59,033 nt of DNA, from positions 6,987 through 66,019 of the forward strand of contig NZ_AOJL01000061.1 in assembly GCF_000337035.1 (NCBI RefSeq), read 5' to 3'. The stretch comes from Halorubrum coriense DSM 10284. Its GTDB lineage: Archaea > Halobacteriota > Halobacteria > Halobacteriales > Haloferacaceae. The notes below the pieces were generated by a model, which was not told the DNA's origin, did not search any database, and was given only the letters and a program-made list of their open reading frames with translations. Positions 1 to 56,924 of this stretch are shown here, piece by piece. Each line of letters starts with the position of its first letter. Positions within the stretch are counted from its first letter, which is position 1. Made by a program: the position numbers and the translations under genes.

Positions 1-258
1 GAGTGGGACACCTCGAGAACGTGTTCACGGTGTGGAGACGACGCGAAATCGAACCGTGTCGAGCGTGGCCTGTACGTCTGCTCGTCGTGCGAGTTGGTAG
101 CCAACGCGGATTGTAACGGGGCGGAGAATATGCGTCAGAAGATAACTCCGAGTCCTCACGGCGAGGATAGGAGTACCGGCTGTGTGGCACAGCCATCGAC
201 ACACCTGTTCGACCGCGAGAGCGGGAGATTTCACACGAGAGAACAAGTCGTGTCGTAG
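1..258 (+). CDS. tnpB: TnpB RNA-guided nuclease, C-terminal part (cut by window edge)
   Basis: Frame 1 is open from the first base to a TAG at 256-258 and encodes the last 85 residues of an IS605/IS1341-type TnpB. Visible are the zinc-ribbon pair CSRCGDD and CSSCELV, followed by NADCNGAENM, which carries the third RuvC aspartate. The tail is nearly identical to that of the complete TnpB at 34851-36101, so both belong to one haloarchaeal subfamily. TnpB is a transposon-encoded RNA-guided DNA nuclease. The N-terminal part and the element's left end lie outside the window. Confidence 0.9.
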   Translation, partial: EWDTSRTCSRCGDDAKSNRVERGLYVCSSCELVANADCNGAENMRQKITPSPHGEDRSTGCVAQPSTHLFDRESGRFHTREQVVS

Positions 259-320
259 ACCAGCAAATATCCCACCTGCGGCACGGGAAGCCTCGCCGTT
301 TATGACGAGGAGGATGTCAC
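259..320 (+). mobile_element. Right end of IS605-type element (guide-RNA scaffold hairpin)
   Basis: After the tnpB stop come GGGAAGCCTCG, a short loop, and CGAGGAGGATGTCAC. The same hairpin plus the terminal GAGGATGTCAC recurs at the right ends near 25875, 34790 (minus) and 56905, which defines the element boundary at 320. In this family the right end is the 3' scaffold of the omega RNA and the flank beyond it acts as guide; I infer that here. The terminus also supplies the stop codon of the convergent gene at 317-1336. Confidence 0.75.
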
Positions 321-1336
321 TGCTCGTTAATCATGGAGCGGGCAGCGGACTGGATATTTTCTGCCGTCTTTGATCCGATCTGATATACGTCGGTCAACTC
401 TTCCTGAGACGCTTGTGTAATATCATACGGGGTTTGATACCCAGACTCAGCAAGAAAGTACGCCTGTTGCCCGGTAACAACATCGATATCAGCGACACTT
501 GGCCCGTACAGTACTCGGAGCTTTGGGAGCGCTTCGGAGGCTGGGACACCTGAAGCCGCAAGTGACGAGAGAGCAGGGTCAAATACTGATTCTGAAACTC
601 CAGTCTGGTCACGAAGCCGCTCAGCGGCAGGTTTCGCTCTCCCAACGAGTTCACGAGCTCCCTCGATAGCCACACCAGTAATTCCTTCGGAGATTCCGTT
701 AATATCGGAAAGATACCCAGGTCGAGAGTCCGCCAGCTCTTCGAGAGACGCCACGCCCGCCTCCGCGAATTTGCCCGCCCTCTGTGGTCCAATACCTTGA
801 ATGCGCTCTAGTTCAGAGAGAATTTCTGCTTTAGACCGCTCCGGTTTTTCTGACTCTGTGACCTTTCCCTCCGGATTCGAAGCTTGGGGAACCGGGCTCG
901 TATTTTCACTAGGTTTCAGTGAATCCGGAAGAGAGGGAAGATCGACGATTTGGAGGTCATCCGAAGAGACGTCATCAGCGATCGGGGAATTTTCCAGAGC
1001 GGATTGGACGCGTTTACCGTTTCGTTCAGCGATGTTGGACTCGGTAACGTACGAGACTAGTGCCGATCGCTCGCGAGAACTGAGCATCCCGCTGGATGGG
1101 AGATCACCAATAACAGCATCCACGTCGCGTTGGTTCGGAAACCACGCGTCCCCCATGGCTACGAAGAACGGAACGAATGGCTCAGGAACGGTGTCTCGTT
1201 CAGTGAGCCCCAACTTGTCCGTAAGCACGACAACGGCCCTATCATCTAGTGACAATTGGTACCGCCCACCGGGGAGAGAGATCTCCAGTTTTAATCGATC
1301 GACCGAATCGCGAATCAGCCTCGTCGGTTGGCGCAT
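317..1336 (-). CDS. Helix-hairpin-helix protein of unknown function
   Basis: 339 aa. The N-terminal ~110 residues are a globular domain I do not recognise. Residues ~120-170 are a Ser/Pro/Glu-rich linker. The C-terminal ~165 residues hold two helix-hairpin-helix DNA-binding units: LERIQGIGPQRAGKFAEAG and, near the end, a unit with VYQIGSKTAENI. The spacing GYQTPYDIT...EELTDV..IG parallels GFETPADVT...ESLTEA..VG in the neighbouring RecQ-like protein, so the two proteins share the same module. The start is ATG at 1336. The TGA stop at 317-319 lies inside the inserted IS terminus, so the native C-terminus is probably altered. Role unknown; a DNA-structure-binding partner of the helicase is a reasonable inference. 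Confidence 0.75.
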   Translation of the reverse strand: MRQPTRLIRDSVDRLKLEISLPGGRYQLSLDDRAVVVLTDKLGLTERDTVPEPFVPFFVAMGDAWFPNQRDVDAVIGDLPSSGMLSSRERSALVSYVTESNIAERNGKRVQSALENSPIADDVSSDDLQIVDLPSLPDSLKPSENTSPVPQASNPEGKVTESEKPERSKAEILSELERIQGIGPQRAGKFAEAGVASLEELADSRPGYLSDINGISEGITGVAIEGARELVGRAKPAAERLRDQTGVSESVFDPALSSLAASGVPASEALPKLRVLYGPSVADIDVVTGQQAYFLAESGYQTPYDITQASQEELTDVYQIGSKTAENIQSAARSMINEQ

Positions 1337-1608
1337 GTTACTCCGTTTTCCTCACACATGATAAGGATTCGACTAGAAGAAAAGCAGACATGTTCTGTGT
1401 AGTAGCTAGATAACTAAAGGACCCAATGCCATATGACAACTGATAGATCGTCACCAAATTCTGACAATGAAGAGCTTATTGAGATATTCGGGAAGGTAGC
1501 AGCCTAATCCGTGCGGTATCTGTTACTTGGCTAGGGGATCGAATTCTTCAGTATGGACGCTAATACACCTCTTCTCCGAGTAAACGCTTCCCAGAGTTGA
1601 ACCGGTTC

Positions 1609-1965
1609 TCAAATTTCTGCTAAGGCAAATGGGTATACTGGCCCACTGCCGGCGTCACGGAGCATAAACGCCGCTCCAGTAAATGTCCAGCGTGAGTCGA
1701 CAATGTCGTTAACAACTAACACTGGACCTGCCCGAACACTACCAGCAGCGGTCATAGTACCCTCAACGTTCCACCGCTTCTGATACGAGTTGGCCAACTC
1801 TTTTCGAGGTTGTACCGACTTGGTTTGCTCCAATGCCTCGATGTAGGGTAGATCCAAGTTCGCTGCTATCTGCTGGGCAAGATCTGCGATCTGACCGGTT
1901 TTATCCCAAATAGGAACTGAGGTTACCCACGCCGGCGCGGGTGACGGACTCCACTCACCATACAG
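1609..1965 (-). pseudogene. Phosphoribosyltransferase-like domain detached from RecQ-like helicase
   Basis: Directly downstream of the helicase stop, and in the same reading frame, 118 codons remain open: LYGEWSPSPAPAWVTSVPIW, then DKTGQIADLAQQIA, PRKELANSYQKRWNVEG, GPVLVVNDIVDSRWTFTG and GSGPVYPFALAEI, ending in TGA at 1609. This matches the C-terminal PRT-like domain known from RecQ-type helicases of actinobacteria and others (pattern VLLVDD-VDSGWT). Separation from the helicase by one TAA at 1966-1968 points to a nonsense mutation, unless there is readthrough or internal initiation. An ATG exists at 1857, but it would cut the domain in half. Confidence 0.75.
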
Positions 1966-4584
1966 TTATACAGCAGCTGAGATGAGATCGGCGTGATACT
2001 GGCCAGTACCTCGTTGTTCTCTTACACGTGTTCCCCAACCAGGGTCATCTAGTGTCGCCAGCACAAGGCCATGTTCCATGTTCCGGTCATCATCGATCAC
2101 AGAGCGCCCGCCATCTTGCTTTGGCAGGTAGTATCGCGACGATATCTCACCAGTTGATGCGCCCTTATAATGATCAACCGCTACATCGACCAGTTCACCC
2201 TTTTCGATAGTCGATGGAACAAACCCACCAACACAATTGGCACGCTGTCCGCAGTCCCTCTCAAGTGATCCGTCTAACTCATTATCGATGAACCGAGTGA
2301 GACACGTATCAGTCGCTGCAAACTCTTGGATTCGCTCTAATTCTTCCCACCGGTGCTGTGTAACTGACTCAATACGATCGTGATCGTAAGGCCAGTCTTT
2401 GGTGGTCCGCTCATACCCGTTTTCTCCTTTGTAGATCGCATTCTCAACCCGCAGGATGTTGAGACAAGTATCCGCAGCGCCCCACCCAATGTTGACGTGT
2501 TTAAGAAGTTCGTATTTATGGAGTTGGGTGTTGCTGGCTTCGAGTATCTCAAGCACTTCTTGGAAGGCTTCTGGTTCGGGGAAGGCTTGTTCAATAAAGT
2601 ACTCAGCCACCTCGTCATCGCTTTCGCCACTCAGCATAACTGCCTTCGCGTCATCGAGCGCACGCCCAGCTCGCCCAATCTCCTGATAGTATCGGATGAG
2701 GTTCGGCGGCCGTTGGAAGTGGATCACCCAGCCTAAATCGGGTTTGTTGAACCCCATCTCGAGTGCGTTTGTGGCGACGAGCCCGTCAACCTCATTCTCC
2801 ATCAACTGGGATTCAAGCTCCCGACGGCGATCTCCGTCAAGACGGCCATAATATGGCTCGACGCCGTGACCAAACTGTTGGAGCCACTCAGCGACAAGGT
2901 CGACTTCATCAGTCGTCAGGCAGTAAATGATCCCAGAACCATCGAAGGAAGCAACATTCTCAGCAAGCCAAGCAAGCCGCTCAGCCTTTGAGTCCATCTC
3001 AATGGTTTGAATTCGGAGTGAATCTCGAACCAACTCTCCGCGGATCGCATCAAGATCTGGCACCTGTGTTGTGATGTCGTCAACGACGCGATCGTTTGCA
3101 GTGGCCGTCGTTGCTGCCACCGGAATATGTCCCGGTAACTCATTGAGGATACGGCGAATCCGACGGTAGTCAGGCCGGAAATCATGGCCCCAGTCTGAGA
3201 TACAGTGAGCCTCGTCAACGACAAGCAGTCCAAACTCCTCGTTCATCTCTAAGAGAACTTCCTGTTGGAACTGTGAATTTGCGAGTCGCTCTGGCGAGAT
3301 GAGGAGGACGTCACAGTCACCTTCGACGATGGCGGTCTTTGCCTCGTCCCATTCATCGGTGTTGTTGGAGTTAATAGTCCACGCGGAGAGCCCAAGCTGA
3401 TCTTCTGCGTCTTGGACTTGGTTGTGCATCAATGACAACAATGGGCTGATGATGAGTGTCGGGCCAGCCCCCTGTGCTCGGCGGAGTTTGGTGGCAGTGA
3501 AGTAGACCGTACTTTTACCCCACCCAGTCCGCTGGACTAGTAACAACCGATCGTTGTCATTGACAAGTCGATCAATCGCCTCCCACTGTTGTGGACGAAA
3601 CTCCGCATCGGCACCGATGCTTCGTTCCAGTAGTTTCTGTGCTCGGGCTTTCGGTACCCGTCCTGTATCGCCTGAGTTGGCGTGATCAGCAACACCCTCT
3701 CCATCTGGGTGGGCAGTCGACTCAGCTACTGGTGTGTCAGGGTTCGGTTTGGACTGGATGGTGGGGTCTTCGGACTGTGTTGGATCCCCTGTGGTCTTAC
3801 CGTCAGATTCAGGCGTAGACTGTGTCTCGCTAGGGTCACCAACAGCAACCGTCTGGCCCTGTGTCGACGTGTCACTTGATTCGGTCCAGTCATCAACAGC
3901 TTCACCAAGAGACACTGCCATGCTGTCGCCAACGTACTGGGCTTCAGTGAGTGACTCAACAGACGCAGCGGTGACGTCAGCTGGTGTTTCAAATCCCTCC
4001 ACACTCAGCATATGATAGTATTTGATTGAGTAGCCGCCGTCTTGAAGAGCTTCAGCTAGTCGTGCTGGCTCGAACCACTCAATGAGTGATCCGACAGCTT
4101 CCTTTGACAACACTCCGGCAGGTGCGAGGTTACCATACGCTGTAGCAACCTCGCTACGGGGGACATCCAGACCATCTACAAGGTTCGCCAGTAGTGTTCC
4201 ATTGGTCTCGGATGCTTCATTGGCGACTGCCCAGACACGTCGACAGGTTCGTTCTCTAAGTTGTGTCGAGCCAATCAGAGTGGGCAGCGACGCTGATACA
4301 ATATCGTTTACGTGCTCATAGCCAGCATCAGAGAGTTTCCCAGCAAGCGTGGGACCGACGCCAGCAAGGTCTGTCACATCTACTCCTTGTTCTGTCAAGT
4401 TGTCAGCTTCTGCTGTCTCAGAAGTGTGATCAAGCATCGCTGTACGGAACTCGGAGGAGTTCTGATACCCGACAGCCGACCACGAATGAGCAGAATCAGT
4501 TTCATTGGTCATGTGGCGGATTACTTGACTCAGCGTATCTTCGTATTCACAACTAGAAACGGGGCACGAGAACGACTTTGCCAT
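1966..4584 (-). CDS. RecQ-like superfamily 2 helicase with N-terminal zinc finger and HhH domain
   Basis: About 872 aa. The order is: a C2H2-like finger (CPVSSC...H) at the N-terminus; an HhH unit (TDLAGVGPTLAGKL) near residue 75; a second HhH-like segment near 205-230; an acidic Ser/Thr-rich linker to ~310; then the RecQ helicase core. Walker A is RTGWGKST (~355), motif II is VVDEAHCISDWGHDFRPDY (~460), and motif VI is YYQEIGRAGR. The C-terminal PRT-like domain seen in relatives is cut off by TAA at 1966. I chose ATG 4584 over TTG 4602 because a TATA-like box sits about 24 bp upstream, fitting a leaderless transcript. Predicted ATP-dependent 3'-5' DNA unwinding; the biological role (repair or defence) is inferred only. 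Confidence 0.88.
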   Translation of the reverse strand: MAKSFSCPVSSCEYEDTLSQVIRHMTNETDSAHSWSAVGYQNSSEFRTAMLDHTSETAEADNLTEQGVDVTDLAGVGPTLAGKLSDAGYEHVNDIVSASLPTLIGSTQLRERTCRRVWAVANEASETNGTLLANLVDGLDVPRSEVATAYGNLAPAGVLSKEAVGSLIEWFEPARLAEALQDGGYSIKYYHMLSVEGFETPADVTAASVESLTEAQYVGDSMAVSLGEAVDDWTESSDTSTQGQTVAVGDPSETQSTPESDGKTTGDPTQSEDPTIQSKPNPDTPVAESTAHPDGEGVADHANSGDTGRVPKARAQKLLERSIGADAEFRPQQWEAIDRLVNDNDRLLLVQRTGWGKSTVYFTATKLRRAQGAGPTLIISPLLSLMHNQVQDAEDQLGLSAWTINSNNTDEWDEAKTAIVEGDCDVLLISPERLANSQFQQEVLLEMNEEFGLLVVDEAHCISDWGHDFRPDYRRIRRILNELPGHIPVAATTATANDRVVDDITTQVPDLDAIRGELVRDSLRIQTIEMDSKAERLAWLAENVASFDGSGIIYCLTTDEVDLVAEWLQQFGHGVEPYYGRLDGDRRRELESQLMENEVDGLVATNALEMGFNKPDLGWVIHFQRPPNLIRYYQEIGRAGRALDDAKAVMLSGESDDEVAEYFIEQAFPEPEAFQEVLEILEASNTQLHKYELLKHVNIGWGAADTCLNILRVENAIYKGENGYERTTKDWPYDHDRIESVTQHRWEELERIQEFAATDTCLTRFIDNELDGSLERDCGQRANCVGGFVPSTIEKGELVDVAVDHYKGASTGEISSRYYLPKQDGGRSVIDDDRNMEHGLVLATLDDPGWGTRVREQRGTGQYHADLISAAV

Positions 4585-4603
4585 TGGTATCTCTACTAGC
4601 AAG

Positions 4604-4610
4604 TATATGT
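4604..4610 (-). promoter_or_regulatory. TATA-like box for the RecQ-like gene
   Basis: On the minus strand ACATATACTT lies about 20-26 bp before ATG 4584, the usual haloarchaeal distance for a leaderless promoter. This also decides the start codon. Confidence 0.45.
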
Positions 4611-4749
4611 CTCATGACTTATCATTCTCGCCCAAAAGCAAAGATCGAGCATCCAATAGACCACGAAATATTTCGCTTATCGAACTGGTGTCCGGCTGAA
4701 CAGATCCTACCACCTACGTTTTTCTAGAAGACTCGTTGTTGAGTTACAC

Positions 4750-5688
4750 ATGGATTCAGACCGAGCCCGTGGAATCCTCTTCGGGTTGGCCTGCGGGGAT
4801 GCGCTTGGTCGACCAGTTGAGTTCTCGTCGGGAGCCACAATTGCGTCTGACCACGGCCAACTTGACGAGATGGTCGGCCACGGCACATGGAATCAACCGG
4901 CAGGAACGGTCACGGATGATACCGAACAGGCTCTCTGTATTGCCCGCAGCCTTGTCGAACAGCGAACATTCGACCCAGCAGATATCGCGTCTCGGTTCGT
5001 TGATTGGTACGATACTAACCCATTCGACATCGGCCGAATGACTCTAAAATCGCTGAGTCGGCTCAAACATGGTGACGACTGGAGCGAAGCCGGCCAACAC
5101 GTCTGGGAGGATAGCCCAGAGGGCCAAAACGCAGGCAACGGGAGTGTGATGCGGTGTTCACCGCTCGCAATACCATACGCAACTAACTGGGAGCAACTGG
5201 TCAGGGTGAGTCGACAATCCTCATACATCACGCACGCAGATCCACGGTGTACCTACGGGTGTGCCGTATTGAATCTCACACTTGCCGGTCTCCTTGTAGA
5301 CACGGACACGCCGCTTCGAGATGCGCTCCGTTACGTCGACGCAGATGCCCCTGACGAATTGATTACCGCGCTTGATGCGCTGACAGGTAATGAAACGCCC
5401 GGCCGACTAGAGACATCAGGCTACGTTATCCATTCACTCCAGACAGCACTCCACGACGGATTGGAGGCTACAGACGCTGAAGAAGCAATCATCACCGCGG
5501 TTAACCGAGGAGGAGATACTGACACGATTGGGGCGATTACAGGAGCCATCGCAGGAGCCCGGTTTGGGGCATCTCAGCTCCCTGACCGGTGGCTTTCAGG
5601 CATTGATGAAGTAAACGAGCTTGAATCACTAGCAGTGAAACTAGAAGAAACGGCTCTGTTGAATTCCTCAGGAAATGACACATTCTGA
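4750..5688 (+). CDS. ADP-ribosylglycohydrolase family protein (DraG-like)
   Basis: 312 aa, the usual family length. The dinuclear-metal motifs are present: GLACGDALGRPVEF (~12-25), TVTDDTEQAL (~53-61) and NRGGDTDTIGAITGAIAG (~254-271). The family removes ADP-ribose from proteins or nucleic acids. It sits between DNA helicase genes in an accessory island, so it could reverse an ADP-ribosylation made during defence or repair; no ADP-ribosyltransferase is visible nearby. The last ~12 codons (TALLNSSGNDTF) and the stop are read from a solo IS end (GGCTCTGTTGAATTCC...), so the original C-terminus was probably replaced. The catalytic core is complete. Confidence 0.92.
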   Translation: MDSDRARGILFGLACGDALGRPVEFSSGATIASDHGQLDEMVGHGTWNQPAGTVTDDTEQALCIARSLVEQRTFDPADIASRFVDWYDTNPFDIGRMTLKSLSRLKHGDDWSEAGQHVWEDSPEGQNAGNGSVMRCSPLAIPYATNWEQLVRVSRQSSYITHADPRCTYGCAVLNLTLAGLLVDTDTPLRDALRYVDADAPDELITALDALTGNETPGRLETSGYVIHSLQTALHDGLEATDAEEAIITAVNRGGDTDTIGAITGAIAGARFGASQLPDRWLSGIDEVNELESLAVKLEETALLNSSGNDTF

Positions 5689-5712
5689 CCTGGATGTGGT
5701 CAATACAGGCAA
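5653..5712 (+). repeat. Solo IS terminus, type A
   Basis: GGCTCTGTTGAATTCCTCAG followed by GAAATGACACATTCTGACCT and GGATGTGGTCAATACAGG. Near-identical copies lie at 21365 and 58675. No transposase follows. It overlaps the 3' end of the ADP-ribosylglycohydrolase gene. Confidence 0.7.
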
Positions 5713-5772
5713 AGGAGTGACTGACGGACAGAATACAGACATATTTATCATTATTCTGTATCTATTTTCATT

Positions 5773-5981
5773 ATGACCGTTAATGAAACTCTTTCTGCCG
5801 TGGGAAACTCGGAGGTCTCGTTGCTAAACGCAGTTTCAATCATTATTGCTACTGCCCCGTTTGGATACCTATTCGGGTTTTATTCACAGTTCATATCGTT
5901 TCCTCAGAGACGCTCGCTGTGTGGCTAACGACTGTCACGTTCGCCGTTCTGGGCTTAATCGTCTGGTCGGTTCGGTCTTGA
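5773..5981 (+). pseudogene. Frameshifted small two-TM membrane protein
   Basis: ATG at 5773 opens MTVNETLSAVGNSEVSLLNA with a hydrophobic stretch (VSIIIATAPFGYLFGF) and runs into TAA at 5926-5928. In another frame the reading continues VSSETLAVWLTTVTFAVLGL and IVWSVRS to TGA at 5979-5981, giving a second hydrophobic helix. A one-base shift near TTCATATCGTTTCC joins the two halves into a plausible ~68-aa two-helix protein of a type common in haloarchaea. I do not recognise a function. A solo IS end follows immediately. Confidence 0.55.
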
Positions 5982-5984
5982 GTC

Positions 5985-6063
5985 AGACTGCTCAGTTCGC
6001 ACTCTTCAGCGATCAGTTGTTTCAGGAAGAACCTATCTGAAGAAGAGGATTTCAACAGAGCCG
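5985..6063 (-). repeat. Solo IS terminus, type B
   Basis: Read on the minus strand: CGGCTCTGTTGAAATCCTCT, then TCTTCAGATAGG, then a stretch coding SLKQLIAEECEL. Related copies lie at 12305, 37155 and 50157. The coding part looks like a transposase N-terminus, but the rest of the gene is missing. Confidence 0.65.
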
Positions 6064-6177
6064 AAGAAACAGAATTGTGACGCCTTCTTCGCCGCAAACG
6101 GTGAGGAGAGTGCCACTACGACACAATCGATACAGACCAGAGACTCGGGGCCAAATCAATAAGAAACAGGACTGAAA

Positions 6178-8403
6178 CTAGAGAAAATCGTCTAATCCGG
6201 TGTCCACTAAGTCGGCCGTATCCTCCTCAAGCTCATGATCTAAGTCTCTGGTATCAGGGACGTTGAACGAGATCGTCGGCTGTTCGTCCTGTACTTCTTC
6301 TAGTACTGCTTCGACCTCACTGTGGAACGCTGATTCAGGAGTCGTGCCGGTCACGGTACACCATGCACGTGACCGCGTCAAGGCTACGAAGAGCTCATTC
6401 CGCCGGTGTAACTCGGATCCACGCCACGTTTCCTCCATGGTTGAATCAGCACCCATGACGTATATCGAAGCTGCTTCATTCCCTTTTGCTCGGTTGATTC
6501 CGGACAACGTCACCTCTCCAGGCCGCTCAAACTCTTTATCATCATTAGCTGTTGATGAGTTCCTATCTGGCCACACGGCGTTCAATTCGATATCAAACGC
6601 ATTGAGTGAATGCGCCAGTTCTGATTCAACGAACTCCCGATTACTTTTTCCGCATCTCCGCTGACCGCTTAGTGGGATTACGAGTAGATCTTCGGGATCT
6701 AATCCTTTCTCGAAGATGTCCTTACGGATCTGCTCAGCGACCCATTCGATTTCATCTGCTTTGGAGGCGAACGATTGGTGTGTGAGATGCTTCTCAGGCG
6801 GGTAGTTGTCTTGGAGCGGATGTGGGGAGTTCTCCGGTGGTCTCGTTAGTATCGCTTCACTTCCGGTTTTACGGAAGTCCCCGTCAATGTCGTAGCCAAG
6901 GTTTTCCCAGCCATCTTGCCGCGTGATCATCTGGACCGGGCCATCGTCCCGCTTGAGTCCCATCCCCAGTGCGTGAGCACTCATAAGGAGAGGGCGAGGG
7001 GAGCGGTAGGCCTTCCGCATAATGTAGGTCTTCTGTGGACCGTTCTTATATGTCCCACTCAGATCTAACAGAACGTTACCGTCATCGTTGCTTCCGAACA
7101 GATTCTTTGGACTTGGTGCCTCCAAACTTCCGAGGTCTTGTGCCTCATCGTAAGCCCAAATAAGCCGATTATCGTCTGTGAGCGACTCTAGACACATGTT
7201 GAGGAACTTGGGACCGAAGTCTTGAGCTTCATCAACCAGAATCGCATCCCAGAGATTCGGAAGATGTTCTTTCGGTGCGTCGAGAACTTCCTGTGAGACT
7301 GCCTCAAGTTTATCTTCAACCTCTGGAAACGCCGACTTTGCATCTGGATAGGTTCGATAATCAACGCCCTCAACATTATTGACGACGCGATAGTAGACTC
7401 CATCTCCAGTTTGGACACCACCCCAGCCGTGGATGATATCGATCTCTGCGTCAGCCTCCGCAAGCTGTTCGCCACTAAACTGCTCATAATACCGCTCTGT
7501 GAGAGACGTAATGTGGTCGTAGAGACTCTTTGTGTTGAAAGTCAGCGCAATCCGGGGAGTTTCTACATCAGGTGCCCACTCATCTGGGTCACTGAGCATC
7601 CGCGCTGCTTTCATTGCGACAAGTACCGTTTTTCCTGATCCAGCGATGCCTCGAATCTGTTGTGGGCCAGGCGGAATCCGGAGGCCGATCTCTTGCTGTC
7701 GCATATCCAATTCGCGGATCCCAGTGGTCACCACGTCGTAATGCTCTCCCCGTGTAGTGGGGTCATCAGGTGGAGATCCGTGTGAACCGCTAATCGGCTG
7801 GCCACAGCTGAGGACAGCCCGAGCAGCATCGTACTGGTCTTCGCTCAACGGATCGAAGTTTGGGAGTTGATCAAGCCGTCCGCGGAGGGTTTGGGCACCC
7901 AACTCATCACCGGTAATTACTCTTGGGGCAGCTGGCCCGGTGAATCCCCGCTCTTCCCATTCGGACCGGTCAATGTTTGGAAGAGCGACAATTGGCGTCA
8001 TCGAGACAACGCACTGTCCGGCTGACCGGAGTTGTGACTCCCGCTGAAAATATGACTGGAGATGGTATCCTTGATCTCGTGCCTGCTCAAGTGGGCTCGC
8101 AGTTTTTTGAGTTACTCCATCCAGAATCCACGTATCTCCTTCAATTCGATCTATCTGGTCTATCGTGAATCCTTTACATTCTAGAATAACCAGCCCCATA
8201 TTCTCATGTAGCAGTACGAAATCCGGCTTACGATCGAACCGATTCCCACCCTTCTGAATGATGGGATATTGATGGTAGAGGACTCCATTCTCATCCTTAT
8301 CAAACGCTCGTTTGAGCCGATTCCAGAATTTGAGTTCTGCTTCGCCGCCAGGATCGGACTCAGAGACCGAAGAGGCAGACAGGTATTCCATGTGTGCCAA
8401 CAT
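6178..8403 (-). CDS. NERD nuclease domain - UvrD-type helicase fusion
   Basis: 741 aa. Residues ~20-130 form a NERD (nuclease-related) domain with the PD-(D/E)xK signature PDFVLLHEN...VILECKG (D61, E75, K77). An SF1 helicase follows: Walker A GIAGSGKTV (~252-260), FNTKSLYDHI, motif II ILVDEAQDFG (~390), and C-terminal RAKGNEAASIYVMGAD and ELFVALTRSRAWCTVTG motifs. The start is ATG 8403 (a second ATG is at 8391). It is divergent from the large UvrD helicase beginning at 8676, so a shared 272-bp promoter region is likely. NERD-helicase fusions are widespread in accessory islands and probably process DNA ends; which DNA they act on is not evident here. Confidence 0.9.
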   Translation of the reverse strand: MLAHMEYLSASSVSESDPGGEAELKFWNRLKRAFDKDENGVLYHQYPIIQKGGNRFDRKPDFVLLHENMGLVILECKGFTIDQIDRIEGDTWILDGVTQKTASPLEQARDQGYHLQSYFQRESQLRSAGQCVVSMTPIVALPNIDRSEWEERGFTGPAAPRVITGDELGAQTLRGRLDQLPNFDPLSEDQYDAARAVLSCGQPISGSHGSPPDDPTTRGEHYDVVTTGIRELDMRQQEIGLRIPPGPQQIRGIAGSGKTVLVAMKAARMLSDPDEWAPDVETPRIALTFNTKSLYDHITSLTERYYEQFSGEQLAEADAEIDIIHGWGGVQTGDGVYYRVVNNVEGVDYRTYPDAKSAFPEVEDKLEAVSQEVLDAPKEHLPNLWDAILVDEAQDFGPKFLNMCLESLTDDNRLIWAYDEAQDLGSLEAPSPKNLFGSNDDGNVLLDLSGTYKNGPQKTYIMRKAYRSPRPLLMSAHALGMGLKRDDGPVQMITRQDGWENLGYDIDGDFRKTGSEAILTRPPENSPHPLQDNYPPEKHLTHQSFASKADEIEWVAEQIRKDIFEKGLDPEDLLVIPLSGQRRCGKSNREFVESELAHSLNAFDIELNAVWPDRNSSTANDDKEFERPGEVTLSGINRAKGNEAASIYVMGADSTMEETWRGSELHRRNELFVALTRSRAWCTVTGTTPESAFHSEVEAVLEEVQDEQPTISFNVPDTRDLDHELEEDTADLVDTGLDDFL

Positions 8404-8675
8404 TATACGACATTTGATATATCTGACGAACTCCAGGATGGCGTTCCGCTACTTTTGATTGGAATTTCTAGCCCTAACTAGGTACACACTGATTTCACCC
8501 TCCAATTGCTCAATTGGAATCTAATATATCGGAATTTGTAAACAATAATTCGAGGATACATTTAGCGTTTATCTTAGGTGAGGATCCTACTACTTCGCTC
8601 CTTTCAAAAAATATACTATGCGTGATCTACACCAGTACTGTACCGGCTAAACAGATTGAAAATCCTCGGTTAACT

Positions 8676-11600
8676 ATGGAACTTGAGCACGCATCTTCTT
8701 GGGACGAATACCAGCGCACACTCGAATCGAAGCAGAATAGCACATTATTTTCGTTGCTTCCAGGCGCGCTCAAAACCACGATTTACGGAGACCTTGTTAC
8801 CGAGATAGAACAAGCAGATGAGCGGAGAACGCAAGCCGAACAGCGGTTCGAAGAGCAAAAAACAGAAGTTCGCACTTTGCTGTCGGATCTTGACAAGGAT
8901 ATTCGTTCATGTCGACATCGGGGCGAACCACTCCCTTCAGAAGTACGACAGCAGGTACCAGACATCCGAGATACCCGTGTACAAGTGAGTGGACTGCTGG
9001 AGGATTACACACAATATCTTACAACTGCTGAGCAGTCTACATTACGTCAGTTACAGGACACTCTGGAGAAACGGGTTGAGTACCTCCAATCGAAAGAACA
9101 GTTCGATGACGGGACCGCTGAAGTTCAGGAGATTTTGGCCGACATTGAAACTGACGTCGAAGCAGTCTACGATTCGGATGCTCTATTGCCGGCTGATGAC
9201 AAAGACGCCATGTTGAAGCGGATTGATCGCGCTAATCAATCACTGGTGGCTGTCGAACCAGACTCACCTGAGACACCACTTACCGAGCCTGATCTTCAGG
9301 TTGTTGAGGATTTATCTGAGCAACTTGTGTCTTTGCGCGAACAGATTGAGGTGTACAACTCGAAGTACGTCGCAAAAAGATATGAAACAGTGTATGACAG
9401 AGCGGTACGCCTTTACAAAAAATCAAACGAGAATCTAGCAGCCTCACAAACACAAGGTGCTTCGCTGCCCACCTCGGGAGAAGAACTTCTCGAACGCGTA
9501 GACACCATACTCGGAGCCCTTGATGAGTTCCGACAGCCGGACGCAAAAGATGAGTTGACCAGCGATCAGCTAGATAACATCACTTCTGTTCGGTCACGGC
9601 TTCAAGATCAGCGCGAGTTCATTCGCTCGAAACACGTATTTGACTCGCAGATTGGGCATCTGGACACGCCTGTTTCGGACGTAGAGTCCGAAGTAGCAGA
9701 GCCAACATCACGTGGTTCCTACATAACGACTCCTGAAAGAGAGTCAATTAATTCGACGGTGGAGAATATCAAGACATCCATTGCTGAATTTCAGGATGGA
9801 ATTACGGTAGACGTGCTCGCAGAAAGCGATCGGCAACGGCTAAACAATCTCAAAAGGCGGGTGGTTGGATTGGAAGACCAAGTCGACCACGTTAACGAGC
9901 AGTTCGTGGATCGTAAGCGGAGCCAGTACCAAGACATGTTCAGTGGATTCGGTGAAGAGGATCTCGCCCTCAACTCAGAACAGGAACTTGCGGTGTACCG
10001 AAATGACGTTCACAATCAAGTAATCGCTGGAGCCGGAACCGGAAAGACATTCTCGCTGTCTTGTCGAGTCAAGTATCTCGTTGAAGAGGGTATTTCTGAG
10101 GACGATATTCTCACCCTGACGTTCACGCGGAAGGCAGCTGACGAGATGGAAGAGCGATTGGACGACATGTTCGATATTACAGGTGTCGAAACATCCACCC
10201 TCCACTCGTTCGGAAACAGGACACTCAATGAAGTCGACCCGACTCTCGTACAGATTGAAGACCAGAGTCGGCTACGCGAAGCAGGGCAGCTTATCCGTAC
10301 ACTACGGGCTGATAACCCTGAATTCCGATCGCATTTTGAGTCGTTCCTCAATATCTACGCCGAAGAGAATCTCAGTGACGACCGCGACACTCGGGCAGAC
10401 TTTGTCGATTCACTACGATATAAATCCGATACGACACTCCGAGGTGAAGAGGTTGAGTCGCAGTTCGACGAAGAACAGGAGGTCCACACCAGCATTGCCG
10501 ACTGGCTATTCAAGCACCAACTTGACTATCGGTATCGCCAGTACGCAGCGTGGGCAGGGAATCCGGGTAACGAAGCGTACATCCCTGACTTCACACTACC
10601 TGGGCAGAATATCTGTATCGAGTACATTCCATCCTCGTCGACTCGCCGTCGCAAGCGTTGGTACGAACAAAAACCAACGGCTGCCGAGATTGCGGCCATC
10701 TTTGAAGATACTGAAAGGACGTGTATAGTAATCGATGGTGATGAGATCACGCCGAAACAGGTTACTCACTATCTTGCTGAGCAGTTGTCAGCGCGCGGCA
10801 TCGAGATGGAAGAGACGCTCCAAGGGACGGAACTTCAGGATGCGGTCTATGAACATAACATCCTAGAACGGGAGGTTGAGTCCCACTTCGCTGAGTTTGT
10901 CAAGAAAGCGAAAACGAATCAGCGAGACCCTCGAGAGTATCTTGAGACGCTTGACGAGGAGGCGGACCCCGAACTGTACCATTTCAGTCACGCTGCGACG
11001 CGAGTCCTTGAAGCGTACAACGAGCAGTACGAGAAGTATAACGCGTACGACTTCGTGGACATGATCGTGATGGCGACCTCGGCGATCGAAAGCGACGAAG
11101 CCGGTGACATGGCCGAGTTTAAACACGTCATGGTTGACGAGTTCCAAGACTTGAATCTCGTCCAAGTTGAGTTCATTCAGGCTCTTCTTGACCAACATAA
11201 GGACGCCAGACTGTTCGCGGTCGGCGACGACTGGCAGAGCATCTACGGGTTCAAGGGAGCACGCCCAGACTACTTCATTGACTTTGAGCAGCACTTCCCA
11301 TACGACACGAAGACTGAACTCGAAACCAACTACCGGTGCCCACCAAGTGTTGTTCAAGCTGGCAATACCCTAATTCAGAATAACGACGCTAAGACCGCTA
11401 AGACCGTCAAAGCAAACAAGTCACTCGAAACGACGCCTCAAGTTCATCTTGTACCGGGATCTAATGATTTTCAGTACAAGCGGAACGCAATTAACAAGCT
11501 GGTCCAACTCGTGACCAAATCACTTCACACCAATCCAGACCGTGAGCCTTCGGATATCATGGTTCTCGCCCGCAACGAGGAGGGCTCACCGTTCATTCGC

Positions 11601-12206
11601 GATGTAACAAGAGAGCTCCAGAAACGCGACATCGAGGTTGGTGGTAGCTCCGGCGTTGAAGTGACCACTGCTCACCAATCAAAAGGGAAAGAAGCCGAAC
11701 ACGTCGTTATTGCGAATGTAGCTTGTGAGATGAACGATGGCTTCCCTCCTACAGGGGGTGACCGGAATCTTACCGCGCTGGTCGAAGTGAACACCGGTTC
11801 CCACTTCGATGAAGAGCGGCGCTTATTCTACGTAGCGCTCACCCGAGCCGAAAAGCGACTTGATATTCAGTCTCGAACTGGACAACAGTCTCCCTTCTTA
11901 GGCGAAATTCAAGACCACACCGACCTAAATTCGAGTGGTATTGACTGTACTGTTCACCGCACAACGGTCACTGTTACAGTCGCTGACGAGCGGGAAGCCG
12001 AACCATATTGGGAAACTCGTCAGGTCGGTGAGGTCGTAATCGACGGCGAGCACTCGCTCAACTTCGCTATTGATGATGACGCCACAAACCAACCGCTCCT
12101 TGACGCTGGGACAGCGTATCGGTTAGAAGGCGTGCGGGTCGGCGAGTACGACGGGCAACCACAACTCCAGATCGATCAAGAAACAACCATCACGTCTCAA
12201 CCGTAG
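8676..12206 (+). CDS. Large UvrD/Rep-family helicase with coiled-coil N-terminus and embedded nuclease-like domain
   Basis: 1176 aa from ATG 8676; an upstream TTG at 8514 would add 54 residues without domain content. Residues 1-430 are mostly charged and coiled-coil-like (many Glu/Gln/Arg heptads). The SF1A core has Walker A AGAGTGKTFS (~450), TLTFTRKAADEM, motif II VDEFQDLN (~821), VGDDWQSIYGFKGARP, NYRCPPS, HQSKGKEAEHV (~1001) and YVALTRAEK (~1051). Between motifs Ia and II sits a segment with YRYRQY...YIPDFTLPGQNICIEY, the pattern of the nuclease-like insert found in many HelD/UvrD-like proteins. The last ~85 residues look like a small beta-rich OB-type domain (VTVADEREAEPYWETRQV). It probably works with the divergent NERD-helicase. 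Confidence 0.9.
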   Translation: MELEHASSWDEYQRTLESKQNSTLFSLLPGALKTTIYGDLVTEIEQADERRTQAEQRFEEQKTEVRTLLSDLDKDIRSCRHRGEPLPSEVRQQVPDIRDTRVQVSGLLEDYTQYLTTAEQSTLRQLQDTLEKRVEYLQSKEQFDDGTAEVQEILADIETDVEAVYDSDALLPADDKDAMLKRIDRANQSLVAVEPDSPETPLTEPDLQVVEDLSEQLVSLREQIEVYNSKYVAKRYETVYDRAVRLYKKSNENLAASQTQGASLPTSGEELLERVDTILGALDEFRQPDAKDELTSDQLDNITSVRSRLQDQREFIRSKHVFDSQIGHLDTPVSDVESEVAEPTSRGSYITTPERESINSTVENIKTSIAEFQDGITVDVLAESDRQRLNNLKRRVVGLEDQVDHVNEQFVDRKRSQYQDMFSGFGEEDLALNSEQELAVYRNDVHNQVIAGAGTGKTFSLSCRVKYLVEEGISEDDILTLTFTRKAADEMEERLDDMFDITGVETSTLHSFGNRTLNEVDPTLVQIEDQSRLREAGQLIRTLRADNPEFRSHFESFLNIYAEENLSDDRDTRADFVDSLRYKSDTTLRGEEVESQFDEEQEVHTSIADWLFKHQLDYRYRQYAAWAGNPGNEAYIPDFTLPGQNICIEYIPSSSTRRRKRWYEQKPTAAEIAAIFEDTERTCIVIDGDEITPKQVTHYLAEQLSARGIEMEETLQGTELQDAVYEHNILEREVESHFAEFVKKAKTNQRDPREYLETLDEEADPELYHFSHAATRVLEAYNEQYEKYNAYDFVDMIVMATSAIESDEAGDMAEFKHVMVDEFQDLNLVQVEFIQALLDQHKDARLFAVGDDWQSIYGFKGARPDYFIDFEQHFPYDTKTELETNYRCPPSVVQAGNTLIQNNDAKTAKTVKANKSLETTPQVHLVPGSNDFQYKRNAINKLVQLVTKSLHTNPDREPSDIMVLARNEEGSPFIRDVTRELQKRDIEVGGSSGVEVTTAHQSKGKEAEHVVIANVACEMNDGFPPTGGDRNLTALVEVNTGSHFDEERRLFYVALTRAEKRLDIQSRTGQQSPFLGEIQDHTDLNSSGIDCTVHRTTVTVTVADEREAEPYWETRQVGEVVIDGEHSLNFAIDDDATNQPLLDAGTAYRLEGVRVGEYDGQPQLQIDQETTITSQP

Positions 12207-12304: not shown

Positions 12305-12385
12305 GGCTCTGTTGAAATCCTCTTCTTCAGATGTATTCCCGCCTGAAACAGCTGGTCGATGAGAACTGCGTACTGAGCGATGACC
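12305..12385 (+). repeat. Solo IS terminus, type B
   Basis: GGCTCTGTTGAAATCCTCTT CTTCAG followed by a stretch coding SRLKQLVDENCVLSDD, the start of a lost transposase. It makes the downstream gene appear to have a longer N-terminus than it really has. Confidence 0.65.
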
Positions 12386-50306: not shown

Positions 50307-52715
50307 TCAGTCAGATTCCACCTCGCCTGGTGGGGAATGGTCACCGGCTCCGGGGTCACTCGAGTCTGGTTTTGCCGGTTGCGGATCAGGTGTTGGAGAG
50401 TCTCTCTCGACCTCTGCCGGCGTGGCCCCCACATCCGTATCGAACTGTTTGAGCATCTCCGAGAGCCGATTGGCTCGGTCAGAAAGCGACGAGACAGACT
50501 CAGAAACCTCCGTGAGAGAGGTGGTCTGTTCTTCGGCTGCGGCAGCGACAGTATCCGCTTCGGACGCTGTCTCTTCGCTAATCGCCGCCACCTCATCGGC
50601 CATAGAGACGACTTCCTCCGTGGATGCGGCCTGCTCTTCGGTCACATCGGATATTTCTTGGACGCCGTCATTCGTCTCGTCCGCGAGGTCAGCAATGTGC
50701 TCGAGGTCGTCGACGGCCGCCTCCACGCGTGTAGCAGCATCGTCAATCTGCTCGCTTGTCGATTCAACTTCGGCCGTCGACTCGTCCATACGTCTGCGGA
50801 TCGCGTCAATACGCGATTCTGCGGTCTCTGCCGCGTCTTTCACCTCGTCAGATAGCGCCTTGATCTCTTCTGCGACAACCTCGAACCCCTTTCCAGCTTC
50901 GCCGGTGGAGCGGGCGGCTTCGATGTTCGCGTTCAGTGCGAGGATGTTTGTCTGTTCTGCAATTTCGGAGATCCGATCTATCAACTGGTCCACCTCGCTC
51001 ACCTCATTGTCGAGGGCGTGGATCGCTCCGACAGCCTCCTCAACCGTCTCCTCTGTGATTTCCATCTCGTTGATAGCGTCTTTGGCAGCCTTCTGTCCCC
51101 GGTCACCTGCCTCTGCGGTCCGCGCGGCTGCGTCGGCAACTTGGTCGGAGGACGAGGCAACCTCCTCAATCGTCGCCGAGAGGTCGCTCATCTCGTCTCT
51201 CACCTCGGTTAGCGACTCACTCTGGTCGGCAGCACCCCGCGAAATCTCATCGACCGAGCCGGCGACCCCTGACGCTGTCTCGGCAACCTCCTCAGCGGAC
51301 GTGGTTGCCTGCTCGGATGCGGAAGCCACCTCGTCTGCGAACGCCGTGAGGCGGGCATACGTCTGCTCTATCTCTGCGACCATACTGTTGAATTCTTCAG
51401 CAATCGCCGTCATTGCCTCGTCGTCCGCGTCAGTGTACATCCGCGCGGTGAGGTCGCCGTCGGCAGCCTTCCGCATCGTTTCGCCGTAGTCGTCGGCGGT
51501 TGATTGTAGCCGCTCGTTGCGCTGCGCCATCCGCTCACGCTCGGTCTCGGCGGCCTCCTGTGCGGTCTCTGCCTCATCTATCTTGTTGCTGAGGGAGTCG
51601 CGCATCGCGCCGAACGAGCCGTACAAACGACCGATCTCGTCGATCCGATTTGTCTTCAGATCAACCGACAAGTCGCCGGACTCCATACGCTCTGCGCGGT
51701 CGCGAAGGTCACGTAGTGGGGCGACTGTCTGTCGGCTCAAAGTGAGTCCGACAACGACGAGCGACAGCAGTCCGGCACCGATCACCATCAAGACACTAGT
51801 CCCAACTGCGTCGCTTGCGGCGAACGCCTGTTCGCTGGGGACGGTGGTGACGGCGACCCAGTCTTTATCACCAGTTGAAGCGTACGCTGCCACCTCATCG
51901 TCGCCTCGGTCGAAGGCAGTTTCGCCACGAGATGCACCGAGTTCGGAGACGACTTTATCATCCGCGTTTACGCTACCGTTACCACTAGCGAGGATTATGT
52001 CGCCGTTCCCGCCGACGATCATCGTTTCTTGATCAGCGTGGAGTTGTCGGAGGTTGTCCACCCGGTACTCAAGTGTACCCACTAAGACAACCACACGGGA
52101 TTCGTCGCCCTCAACAGGGCTAGCGAACGCCATCACCTGATCGCCCATGGCGTTCGACTCATAGGCAGTTGGGGAGTTCCACACGTCGTTCGACGAGGTC
52201 AGATCAACACCGGGTTGTATGTCACTCCACGGGGCTGTGATGTCGTCGACTGACTCGCCGCGACGATCCGGCGACGTACTCGTGACGACGCTTCCATCAG
52301 CAGTATCAACAAGGTGGATGGCTCGTACGTCGACTGGGAGTTGCGCTTGCTTTTGTATCAACTCTCCTTCAGCCGTCCCAGAGTCCGCCCCGGAAAGTGC
52401 CTGCGTTGACGAGACCGAGCGGGTGTGCGTCTCCATGGAGACTGCCCACTCATTGATCGAGTCAGCATGCATATCGACGGTCGACGTGAGCTGCTGTTCG
52501 GCACCCTGCTCAACAGTAGCCTCCGCGCTCACGTAGTTTATCCCGCCCACGGCAGAGAGAACGACTACGACAAGAAAGATGGAAATGATGAATTTCGACC
52601 GGTAGTTCCGGCGGATTACGTCTGGTGTGAGACCTCTCGCCAGACGACTGACTGCCGACTCGTCGACGGTATTCGACCTATCGGAAGCCTGCTGTGGGTC
52701 GTCGGTATCGCTCAT
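50307..52715 (-). CDS. Halobacterial transducer (methyl-accepting chemotaxis protein)
   Basis: 802 aa. TM1 at ~40-65 (FIISIFLVVVVLSAVGGI), an outer double-Cache-like sensor to ~305, TM2 (SVLMVIGAGLLSLVVVGLTL), HAMP (LRDLRDRAERMESGDLSVDL), then a long coiled coil with the tip ISEIAEQTNILALNANIEAA, RSTGEAGKGFEVVAEEIKAL. It overlaps the upstream binding-lipoprotein gene by 4 bp, the arrangement of BasB-BasT in Halobacterium. It probably receives a ligand signal from that lipoprotein and passes it to CheA. Confidence 0.94.
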   Translation of the reverse strand: MSDTDDPQQASDRSNTVDESAVSRLARGLTPDVIRRNYRSKFIISIFLVVVVLSAVGGINYVSAEATVEQGAEQQLTSTVDMHADSINEWAVSMETHTRSVSSTQALSGADSGTAEGELIQKQAQLPVDVRAIHLVDTADGSVVTSTSPDRRGESVDDITAPWSDIQPGVDLTSSNDVWNSPTAYESNAMGDQVMAFASPVEGDESRVVVLVGTLEYRVDNLRQLHADQETMIVGGNGDIILASGNGSVNADDKVVSELGASRGETAFDRGDDEVAAYASTGDKDWVAVTTVPSEQAFAASDAVGTSVLMVIGAGLLSLVVVGLTLSRQTVAPLRDLRDRAERMESGDLSVDLKTNRIDEIGRLYGSFGAMRDSLSNKIDEAETAQEAAETERERMAQRNERLQSTADDYGETMRKAADGDLTARMYTDADDEAMTAIAEEFNSMVAEIEQTYARLTAFADEVASASEQATTSAEEVAETASGVAGSVDEISRGAADQSESLTEVRDEMSDLSATIEEVASSSDQVADAAARTAEAGDRGQKAAKDAINEMEITEETVEEAVGAIHALDNEVSEVDQLIDRISEIAEQTNILALNANIEAARSTGEAGKGFEVVAEEIKALSDEVKDAAETAESRIDAIRRRMDESTAEVESTSEQIDDAATRVEAAVDDLEHIADLADETNDGVQEISDVTEEQAASTEEVVSMADEVAAISEETASEADTVAAAAEEQTTSLTEVSESVSSLSDRANRLSEMLKQFDTDVGATPAEVERDSPTPDPQPAKPDSSDPGAGDHSPPGEVESD

Positions 52716-53968
52716 GAGCCCACCTCTGGGGTGATCTCTTCGATAACACTGAACCCGTCAGCGTCGTATCGGAAATACTGATAATCAATTCCAGAGACGT
52801 CCCCGTTTTCGTCGAAGACGACTTCACTCGACGCGCCTCGGTACTCGACTGGGTCACCAGCTGCGGCGTGACGTATGCCCTCAGCAAGGGTGTCTGGCGT
52901 GACCTCAGTACCCCCGTCTGCGGTGACACGACGCATCTGTTTCCGAATCGCACCGCCATCGTTTTCGCCTGCGGCGGCATTTGCGAGGAGAATCACTGCG
53001 GCGGCGTCGTATCCGTTTGCGGTGAAGATGCTCGGTTCGCGCCCGAACTCAGACTCATACTGCTCTGCGAAAGCGTCATACCCCGGTCCGTTTGAGGACG
53101 GAGCCGTCCCGTAGACGTTTTGCATCGGCTCGCCCACCTGTTCCGGGAGCGAAGAGTCCATCATCCCGTCGGTCGTGAACACGACCTCATCACCCTCGTA
53201 GCCGTCGTAATAGTGACTGAATATCTCCACGCCGTCTTTCGGATAACCGATCACAAAGAGTAGATCCGGGTCGCCGGAAAGGGCAGCCGCCAGCGGGTCT
53301 TCGTACTCGTCGTCAAAAGAGACTTGTCGCTGTACTTCACCGCCGAAAGACGTGGCGAAGGCGCCCGAAAGTTGTCTGCCGTAGTCTCCAGCGATGTGTA
53401 GCGTTGCGGCCGATGACGCGTCGTGTTTGTCGGCTGCGAGCCGGGCGGCAACGGCTGCCTGTAACGAGTCGTCTGGTGCGGTTCGGAAGCTGAACCCACG
53501 ATCGTTTAGTATTGATAGGGTCGGGGTCGTGCTAGCGGGTGAGCAATTGACTACCTCCGCAGGAATTGAGGCCTGCTGGACCGCTTGTAGAGTCACGTCA
53601 GATCCGAGCGGCCCAGCGATAGCGGGGTACCCCGCATCAACAAGCGTCCGCATCGCATTGATTCCCCCTCGCGCCGTCGTTTCTGAGTCCTCAATCTGTA
53701 ACTCCACGTCGGCCTCGAGATCTGAATCATCGAGTTGTTTCGCTGGGAGTTCAACTGCGTCGGCAATAGGTTCCCCGACTGAACCTAAGCCACCAGAAAG
53801 TGCCATCACTCCCCCGTAGCGAAGCGTTCGCTCTGCTAGAGGCGTGCGGCCCTGTTCGGCTTCTCCAGTCGATCCCAGACACCCCGCAAGTCCAAACGTA
53901 GTGACTCCAGCAGCCGCGGCTAACAGCCCACGTCGACTGCGTGGTTGTGTTTGTCCGTGTTTATACAT
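52712..53968 (-). CDS. Tat lipoprotein, branched-chain-type ligand-binding protein for chemotaxis
   Basis: 418 aa from ATG 53968, chosen because a TATA-like element sits 24-31 bp upstream. Tat motif SRRGLLAAAAG, lipobox GLAGC with Cys30. Peripla_BP_6 fold: LRYGGVMALSGGLGSVGEPI, AIAGPLGSDVTLQAVQQASI, FTANGYDAAAVILLANAAAG. No permease or ATPase follows, only the transducer, so it is a chemotaxis receptor component and not a transport protein. Ligand unknown; an amino acid is likely by family. Confidence 0.9.
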   Translation of the reverse strand: MYKHGQTQPRSRRGLLAAAAGVTTFGLAGCLGSTGEAEQGRTPLAERTLRYGGVMALSGGLGSVGEPIADAVELPAKQLDDSDLEADVELQIEDSETTARGGINAMRTLVDAGYPAIAGPLGSDVTLQAVQQASIPAEVVNCSPASTTPTLSILNDRGFSFRTAPDDSLQAAVAARLAADKHDASSAATLHIAGDYGRQLSGAFATSFGGEVQRQVSFDDEYEDPLAAALSGDPDLLFVIGYPKDGVEIFSHYYDGYEGDEVVFTTDGMMDSSLPEQVGEPMQNVYGTAPSSNGPGYDAFAEQYESEFGREPSIFTANGYDAAAVILLANAAAGENDGGAIRKQMRRVTADGGTEVTPDTLAEGIRHAAAGDPVEYRGASSEVVFDENGDVSGIDYQYFRYDADGFSVIEEITPEVGS

Positions 53969-53991
53969 ACGTGTTATGCTCCCACATGACA

Positions 53992-53999
53992 ATTTAATC
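53992..53999 (-). promoter_or_regulatory. TATA-like box of the binding-protein/transducer operon
   Basis: GATTAAATT on the minus strand, 24-31 bp upstream of ATG 53968, fits a leaderless transcript. Confidence 0.45.
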
Positions 54000-56858: not shown

Positions 56859-56912
56859 CTGGTATTCCTCATGCGTGGGAAGCCTCGCCGTTCACGGCGA
56901 GGAGGATGTCAC
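56740..56912 (+). ncRNA. Candidate omega RNA scaffold of the complete IS605 element
   Basis: By analogy with characterised TnpB elements, the RNA spans the 3' end of tnpB and the right end, with guide bases from the flank (CGGCGGTGGTTC...). The terminal perfect 8-bp hairpin and conserved GGATGTCAC support a scaffold. The 5' limit is a guess. Confidence 0.4.
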
Positions 56913-56924
56913 CGGCGGTGGTTC

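What the first reader, a model, noticed from the sequence alone, without database searches (positions are those of the whole stretch)
317..12206. Candidate defence or repair island: HhH protein, RecQ-PRT, ADP-ribosylglycohydrolase, NERD-helicase, giant UvrD
Five nucleic-acid or ADP-ribose enzymes lie together between IS scars. ADP-ribosyl hydrolases and NERD/UvrD helicases are frequent parts of antiviral systems, but this exact set is not one I know.
Basis: inference. Interest (0 to 1): 0.7.

Follow-up and report, generated by a model that had tools for sequence, protein, structure and literature searches.

The report
HhH adaptor linked to helicase-nucleases
The five neighbouring genes in this salt-loving archaeon (Halorubrum) are not one system: three of them (a DNA-gripping HhH protein and two helicase-nucleases) travel together in other species and look like a DNA-processing or defence unit, while the other two are a broken toxin-type gene and an unrelated passenger.

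Summary
All five genes are present, but the set is not one system. Only G207 of 321 other haloarchaeal genomes, plus H. halophilum found by separate searches, holds A, D and E together; RecQ-PRT (B) and the ADP-ribosylglycohydrolase (C) are absent from both loci.

B is a degenerate PsyrT/RqlH-type gene: in-frame TAA before its phosphoribosyltransferase core, lost conserved residues, no DprA-type antitoxin. C is a common accessory gene whose 3' end is cut by an IS remnant.

The other three recur. D (NERD nuclease + UvrD helicase), E (Helicase IV-like UvrD with a PD-(D/E)XK-like insert) and A (HhH protein) lie together in all three of 52 Halorubrum genomes that carry D. They are under purifying selection (dN/dS 0.06-0.12), and the window copy is far more diverged (dS 1.2-1.75) than radA (0.25-0.27).

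A is a DNA-binding adaptor: a new N-terminal domain plus a double-HhH module that also forms B's N-terminus and is fused elsewhere to MrfA/HRQ1-like, Mre11-like (by eye), primase-TFB-like and PRT-DprA proteins. Seven of 13 A-family loci have a UvrD/AddA helicase within 10 kb, against 0 of 21 controls.

Best reading: A recruits D/E to DNA structures for degradation or repair, probably invader control. Function is untested.

The parts
1..257 (+). IS remnant, tail of a TnpB-like ORF (Cys-rich finger, then stop)
   Evidence: Read from the sequence; 69-71% nt match to 413-426-aa ORFs in L144 and L113. The TnpB name is an inference, not profile-tested.
317..1336 (-). Gene A: HhH adaptor, 339 aa. N-terminal domain 1-138, linker 140-164, double-HhH module about 169-338
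   Evidence: Pfam HHH_5 4.8e-16; model mean pLDDT 82.7; first HhH like the RadA N-terminal domain Z 10.5, second like Hel308/Pol theta Z 8.2-8.6; dN/dS about 0.09-0.12
1609..4584 (-). Gene B: degenerate HhH-RecQ-PRT (PsyrT/RqlH type). C2H2-like finger, double-HhH module (about residues 58-244), RecQ helicase, PRT split by an in-frame TAA at 1966-1968
   Evidence: PADLOC PsyrT 2e-194; in-frame stop and lost residues; no PF02481 match above cut-off in the own genome
4750..5688 (+). Gene C: ADP-ribosylglycohydrolase (DraG/ARH family); last residues come from the IS end
   Evidence: ADP_ribosyl_GH 1.2e-78; relatives align to residues 1-299/303 only; IS end at 5651-5709
5652..6062 (.). IS remnant with inverted ends, cutting the 3' end of C and separating it from D
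   Evidence: Copies of the two IS-end repeats, facing each other
6178..8391 (-). Gene D: NERD nuclease + SF1 UvrD-type helicase, about 737 aa; NERD PDF...ECK and helicase motifs intact
   Evidence: PADLOC 'Helicase' 3e-101, NERD+UvrD 6e-24; motifs; orthologues 83-84% in two Halorubrum species; dN/dS 0.06-0.07
8676..12206 (+). Gene E: about 400 aa of coiled-coil helices + UvrD/Helicase IV-like helicase with an inserted PD-(D/E)XK-like segment (about ORF residues 577-766)
   Evidence: UvrD-helicase 1e-49, PRK11054 DNA helicase IV 4e-79; insert alignment; N-terminal helices pLDDT 70-89; dN/dS about 0.10
12305..12378 (+). IS-end repeat closing the D-E block on the right
   Evidence: 82-87% identity to the other copies

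Best explanation
The region is a patchwork of separately acquired accessory genes between IS scars, with one real unit inside it: A + D + E. A is a DNA-structure-binding adaptor (double-HhH module plus a new N-terminal domain) that serves the helicase-nucleases D (NERD-UvrD) and E (coiled-coil UvrD with a PD-(D/E)XK-like insert). Proposed mechanism: A grips junctions, ends or gapped DNA; E and D load there, unwind 3'-5' and cut or degrade the DNA. The likely role is control of invading or damaged DNA. Shown: gene identities, intact motifs in A, D and E, their co-location in three Halorubrum species, purifying selection, divergence well beyond the species, and repeated A-UvrD/AddA adjacency elsewhere. 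Inferred: physical interaction, substrate, direction, and the defence role. B is a decaying PsyrT-type toxin helicase carrying the same HhH module, and C is a passenger; neither belongs to the unit.
For: D in 3 of 52 Halorubrum genomes, each with E divergent next to it. In G207 and H. halophilum the order is D(-)E(+)A(-); E and A are convergent about 200 bp apart in H. halophilum; in the window it is A(-)...D(-)E(+). dN/dS 0.06-0.12; window-to-others dS 1.2-1.75 for A, D, E against 0.25-0.27 for radA. A-family loci with a UvrD/AddA ORF within 10 kb: 7 of 13 against 0 of 21 controls (p=0.0003; 5 of 11 after collapsing the three related Halorubrum loci, p=0.002). Class-wide co-occurrence A-E p=0.014, A-D p=0.025. 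A-type domains next to AddA-like and Dna2-like nucleases (L185), AddAB-like pairs (L134, L136), and fused to an Mre11-like protein beside McrBC (L179). Fold of A's two HhH units.
Against: The D-E pair is found only in Halorubrum (3 genomes, probably one ancestral event). E and D occur mostly apart in other genera, with varied neighbours; D-E co-occurrence class-wide is not significant (p=0.32). D, E and A are on alternating strands, not an operon, and the D-E intergenic DNA is not conserved. A also occurs without a UvrD helicase nearby (6 of 13 loci). radA is one gene with likely strong codon bias, so its dS is a low benchmark. The control loci were not a random sample of the genome. In the window IS remnants, B and C lie between A and D-E.
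Confidence: 0.5

Rival explanations
1. A chance pile-up: a low-GC, IS-rich landing zone in which unrelated defence-like and accessory genes accumulate, with no functional link among any of the five.
For: B and C are unlinked to the rest class-wide. IS ends separate the pieces. The order differs between species. D and E are usually solitary elsewhere.
Against: A, D and E recur together in all three D-bearing Halorubrum genomes, diverged well beyond radA and under purifying selection. A is enriched near UvrD/AddA helicases in other genera.
Confidence: 0.3
2. A five-gene defence system in which the RecQ-PRT makes a ribosyl-type mark or toxin and the ADP-ribosylglycohydrolase removes it, with A, D and E as nuclease arms.
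For: B-type and C-type genes are adjacent on the same strand in G038 and G015 and near each other in G140 and G215.
Against: No other genome found has all five. B is degenerate. B-C presence/absence is not significant (p=0.17). In G038/G015 the C-type gene belongs to a conserved MsrA/FAD/C2H2-CSD neighbourhood that stands without RecQ-PRT in the own genome's C26 (L125).
Confidence: 0.04
3. A, D and E are an accessory DNA-repair set (end resection or fork restart) rather than antiviral.
For: HhH units like RadA and Hel308/Pol theta; AddAB- and Mre11-like partners of the A family; many haloarchaea do without it.
Against: Patchy distribution (A in 9, D in 29, E in 24 of 322 genomes), low G+C, divergence beyond the species, and McrBC, PRT-DprA (ShosT-like) and Mre11-like A fusions in one locus (L179) fit a defence setting better.
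Confidence: 0.16

Closest known systems
PsyrTA / RqlHI (RecQ-like helicase with PRTase toxin domain + DprA-like antitoxin)
   Same: B matches PADLOC PsyrT at 2e-194 and has the RecQ-PRT layout; the G139 relative is followed directly by a DprA-family gene. In E. coli the PRT domain is the toxic part (PMC4670107).
   Different: B is broken, has no antitoxin gene, and carries an N-terminal finger plus double-HhH module. RqlH without RqlI is already known to be common (PMC4670107).
E. coli DNA helicase IV (HelD/PRK11054) and GajB-type UvrD helicases
   Same: E matches PRK11054 4e-79 and GajB models up to 2e-53; same SF1 motifs.
   Different: Long coiled-coil N-terminus (about 400 aa), PD-(D/E)XK-like insert, and no GajA (OLD nuclease) seen in the window ORFs tested.
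NERD-UvrD helicases (PADLOC 'Helicase' PDLC03002, C3a187, RT-associated NERD-Hel)
   Same: D aligns along nearly its whole length to PDLC03002 (3e-101); NERD and SF1 motifs intact.
   Different: No recurring partner gene next to D outside Halorubrum; paired with E and A here.
AddAB / McrBC / SbcCD-type nuclease-helicase machines
   Same: Other A-family members sit beside AddA/AddB-like, McrBC or Mre11-like genes.
   Different: D and E are not AddA/AddB; the HhH adaptor is not a known subunit of these machines (from general knowledge).
HhH domains of RadA/RAD51, NusA, Hel308/Pol theta
   Same: Each HhH unit of A superposes at 1.1-1.7 A.
   Different: Two units joined by a helical linker, plus an N-terminal domain for which the comparison gave no match (not tested on its own).

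Membership tests
PsyrTA / RqlHI toxin-antitoxin | RecQ-type helicase fused to a C-terminal PRT domain | tested here: inconclusive
   Homology clear (PsyrT 2e-194), but the ORF ends at an in-frame TAA before the PRPP loop
PsyrTA / RqlHI toxin-antitoxin | Conserved helicase motif V, zinc-binding Cys and PRPP-loop acidic pair | tested here: not met
   NALEMGF, CGQRANC and ND in place of residues invariant in the intact relatives
PsyrTA / RqlHI toxin-antitoxin | Adjacent DprA-like antitoxin | tested here: not met
   No DprA-like match in the window by tblastn; own genome has only a sub-threshold PF02481 fragment; present beside the G139 relative
Gabija | GajA OLD-family nuclease next to GajB | tested here: not met
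   No OLD/GajA model hit among the ORFs tested around E; E matches GajB models only as a UvrD helicase
Helicase IV (PRK11054) family | SF1A UvrD motifs, best match PRK11054 | tested here: met
   4.2e-79, best NCBIfam hit, though below the curated cut-off of 543 bits (266.8); motifs intact
Helicase IV-like with PD-(D/E)XK insert | Insert with E...PDF...IEH/IEY pattern between helicase motifs | tested here: inconclusive
   PDF and IEY kept, first Glu replaced by His in the window protein; no profile hit for the insert and the model is too poor to confirm the fold
ADP-ribosylglycohydrolase (DraG/ARH) | Full-length PF03747 domain | tested here: met
   1.2e-78 over profile positions 1-287/287
NERD-UvrD helicase | NERD nuclease motif plus SF1 helicase motifs | tested here: met
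   PDF...ECK, Walker A, DEAQD and motif VI present; PADLOC models
Antiviral defence system | Protects against virus | not testable with these tools
   Needs challenge experiments

The most novel reading that the evidence does not exclude
A defines a haloarchaeal family of DNA-structure-reading adaptors (new N-terminal domain + double-HhH module) that plugs, in cis or in trans, into many DNA-attacking machines: UvrD/NERD helicase-nucleases, AddAB-like enzymes, McrBC with an Mre11-like protein, MrfA-like helicases and PRT toxins (RecQ-PRT, HhH-PRT + DprA). It would be a shared recognition head for archaeal DNA defence.
Probability: 0.35. Interest if true: 0.65.

Novelty: new variant of a known kind. 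Interest (0 to 1): 0.45.

Why it matters
If right, it names a testable recognition part that several unrelated archaeal DNA-attacking enzymes share, and explains why HhH proteins of no known function turn up beside helicase-nucleases. It also removes a false lead: the RecQ-PRT/ADP-ribosylglycohydrolase pairing in this window is not a working pair. The A-D-E set is a small, clean candidate for a virus or plasmid challenge in a genetically tractable haloarchaeon.

Tried and rejected
Five-gene system: rejected by genome-wide co-occurrence and B's decay. B as an intact PsyrTA: rejected. B-C functional pair: adjacency seen in G038/G015, but C belongs to another conserved neighbourhood there. Viral origin: scans of viral contigs with A (twice), B, D and E found no relatives; A has no match in PLSDB plasmids. 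A constant partner of D outside Halorubrum: none among the neighbours tested. Folding E: the helicase part was not modelled with two sequences (mean pLDDT 44), so the nuclease-like insert could not be confirmed. PDB comparison of A: only the HhH units matched; the N-terminal domain had no listed match but was not searched alone. D had no PDB sequence relative. A local copy of the whole genome was not available. A first plain radA alignment was on the wrong strand and was redone. Papers searched gave no description of this A family or of an A-D-E set.

Full report
Observation. Three details change: B is broken, E starts at about 8676, and A is a DNA-binding protein rather than an enzyme. The IS scars are real. 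A pair of IS-end repeats bounds a remnant at 5652-6062, which supplies the last codons of C, and another copy starts at 12305, so D-E lies between IS ends. The block is 51-55% G+C against 60% for the rest of the window. Relatives of A place the genome in Halorubrum (inference from closest matches).

Do the genes travel together? The same sample of 322 Halobacteria genomes was searched with each protein: B in 15, E in 24, D in 29, A in 9, C in 91. Leaving out the window's own genome, B is not associated with A, D or E, and C only weakly with E (p=0.03); A-D (p=0.025) and A-E (p=0.014) exceed expectation. These p-values ignore shared ancestry and are uncorrected for ten tests.

The core of three. 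D is present in three of 52 Halorubrum genomes: the window's, G207 and G324, the last being H. halophilum B8 (L190). In each, E is the divergent neighbour. In G207 and H. halophilum the order is D(-)E(+)A(-), and in H. halophilum E and A are convergent, about 200 bp apart. In the window A is on the other side, which keeps orientation and amounts to a cyclic permutation; a circular intermediate is one possible cause, which I did not test. A, D and E have dN/dS of 0.06-0.12 and dS of 1.2-1.75 between the window and the other two, whereas radA has dS 0.25-0.27 among the same genomes and DNA around radA is 84-89% identical. So the window's copy split from the others long before the species did, by transfer or old polymorphism, and the three genes have stayed within about 12 kb of one another.

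What A is. An AlphaFold model of A (mean pLDDT 82.7) has a mixed N-terminal domain and two HhH units. The first resembles the RadA/RAD51 N-terminal domain (Z 10.5 over 61 residues), the second Hel308 and Pol theta (Z 8.2-8.6). The same double-HhH module forms the N-terminus of B. A profile of it finds full-length copies in about 15 proteins of very different length. Fusions seen: RecQ-PRT (window, G139, G306), DEAD helicases with an MrfA zinc-binding domain (one of three profile-tested, L180), a primase-like protein with a TFIIB repeat (L177; primase-like by eye), an Mre11-like protein (L179; by eye only, Pfam found only HhH), and a PRT protein matching ShosT whose reading frame runs into a DprA-family gene (L179).

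A-family genes near helicases. Among 13 loci with A or an A-type N-terminal domain, seven have a UvrD/AddA-type ORF within 10 kb, against none of 21 control loci (23 loci were run; the two hits, in L131 and L145, are the D genes by which those loci were chosen) (p=0.0003). Collapsing the three related Halorubrum loci gives 5 of 11 (p=0.002). The controls are loci chosen around B, C or D, not random ones. Independent cases: an E-like ORF 80 bp from the A fusion in Halohasta litorea (L137, contig edge), a UvrD-PDDEXK helicase 177 bp from an A N-domain ORF (L185), and AddAB-like pairs in L134 and L136.

B. Fourteen relatives with the RecQ core were aligned. The window copy alone has E for G in motif V, and R for C in the zinc cluster; it has N for D in the PRPP loop, and an in-frame TAA in the PRT (the G015 copy is broken too, after about residue 710). 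RqlH toxicity in E. coli maps to the PRT domain and is lost on changing its PRPP site (PMC4670107), so a product ending at the TAA should lack it. No DprA-type antitoxin lies in the window, and the own genome has only a weak PF02481 fragment.

C. An ordinary ADP-ribosylglycohydrolase. The closest relatives are 84% identical in other Halorubrum without A, B, D or E next to them in the two loci read (L186, L187), though H. amylolyticum has a C-type gene 1.6 kb from A.

Mechanism. D keeps a NERD PD...ExK site and a full helicase; E keeps all UvrD motifs and carries an insert with PDF...IEY. My best reading is that A binds a DNA structure and D/E act there as a 3'-5' helicase-nuclease pair. The direction follows from UvrD-family membership (general knowledge). 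Everything about interaction, substrate and defence is inference.

Limits. Small numbers, related genomes, one benchmark gene for divergence, and a non-random control set. D-E pairing is known only from Halorubrum. No function was tested.

Noticed in passing
L179 1-2951 and 3301-9700: HhH-PRT protein matching ShosT (1.5e-12) overlapping a DprA gene (4.6e-54), then McrBC, then an A-type N-domain fused to an Mre11-like and double-HhH protein: a dense defence-like locus.
   Followed up: partly
L118 9423-13283 and L119 10893-14753: HhH-RecQ-PRT followed directly by a DprA-family gene, present as two near-identical copies about 36 kb apart in G139.
   Followed up: partly
L180 4547-7609, L183 8771-11773, L184 3538-6597: DEAD helicases, the one tested with an MrfA zinc-binding domain, carrying the C-terminal part of the double-HhH module.
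   Followed up: partly
L177 5648-8290 and L178 5733-8369: Finger + double-HhH + primase-like segment + TFIIB repeat in one protein.
   Followed up: no
window 5652, 6062, 12305, 21365, 37234, 50156, 58674: Dispersed IS-end/MITE-like repeats starting GGCTCTGTTGAAA, also in other Halorubrum loci. Family not identified.
   Followed up: partly
window 50307-53992: Chemoreceptor + periplasmic binding protein pair; in G207 the same pair lies about 2 kb from D, here it is inverted and about 40 kb away.
   Followed up: no
window 56871-58466: Mrr_cat restriction-endonuclease-domain protein, 531 aa.
   Followed up: no
L125 5642-13186 (own genome, C26): A second E-like helicase (31%) and a second ADP-ribosylglycohydrolase (75%) about 3.5 kb apart.
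   Followed up: partly
L124 4302-11021 and L140 8522-15300: E-like helicases next to a Cdc6-like ATPase, a possible HTH protein and a nucleotidyltransferase (AbiEii-like); related genes lie near RecQ-PRT in L109.
   Followed up: partly
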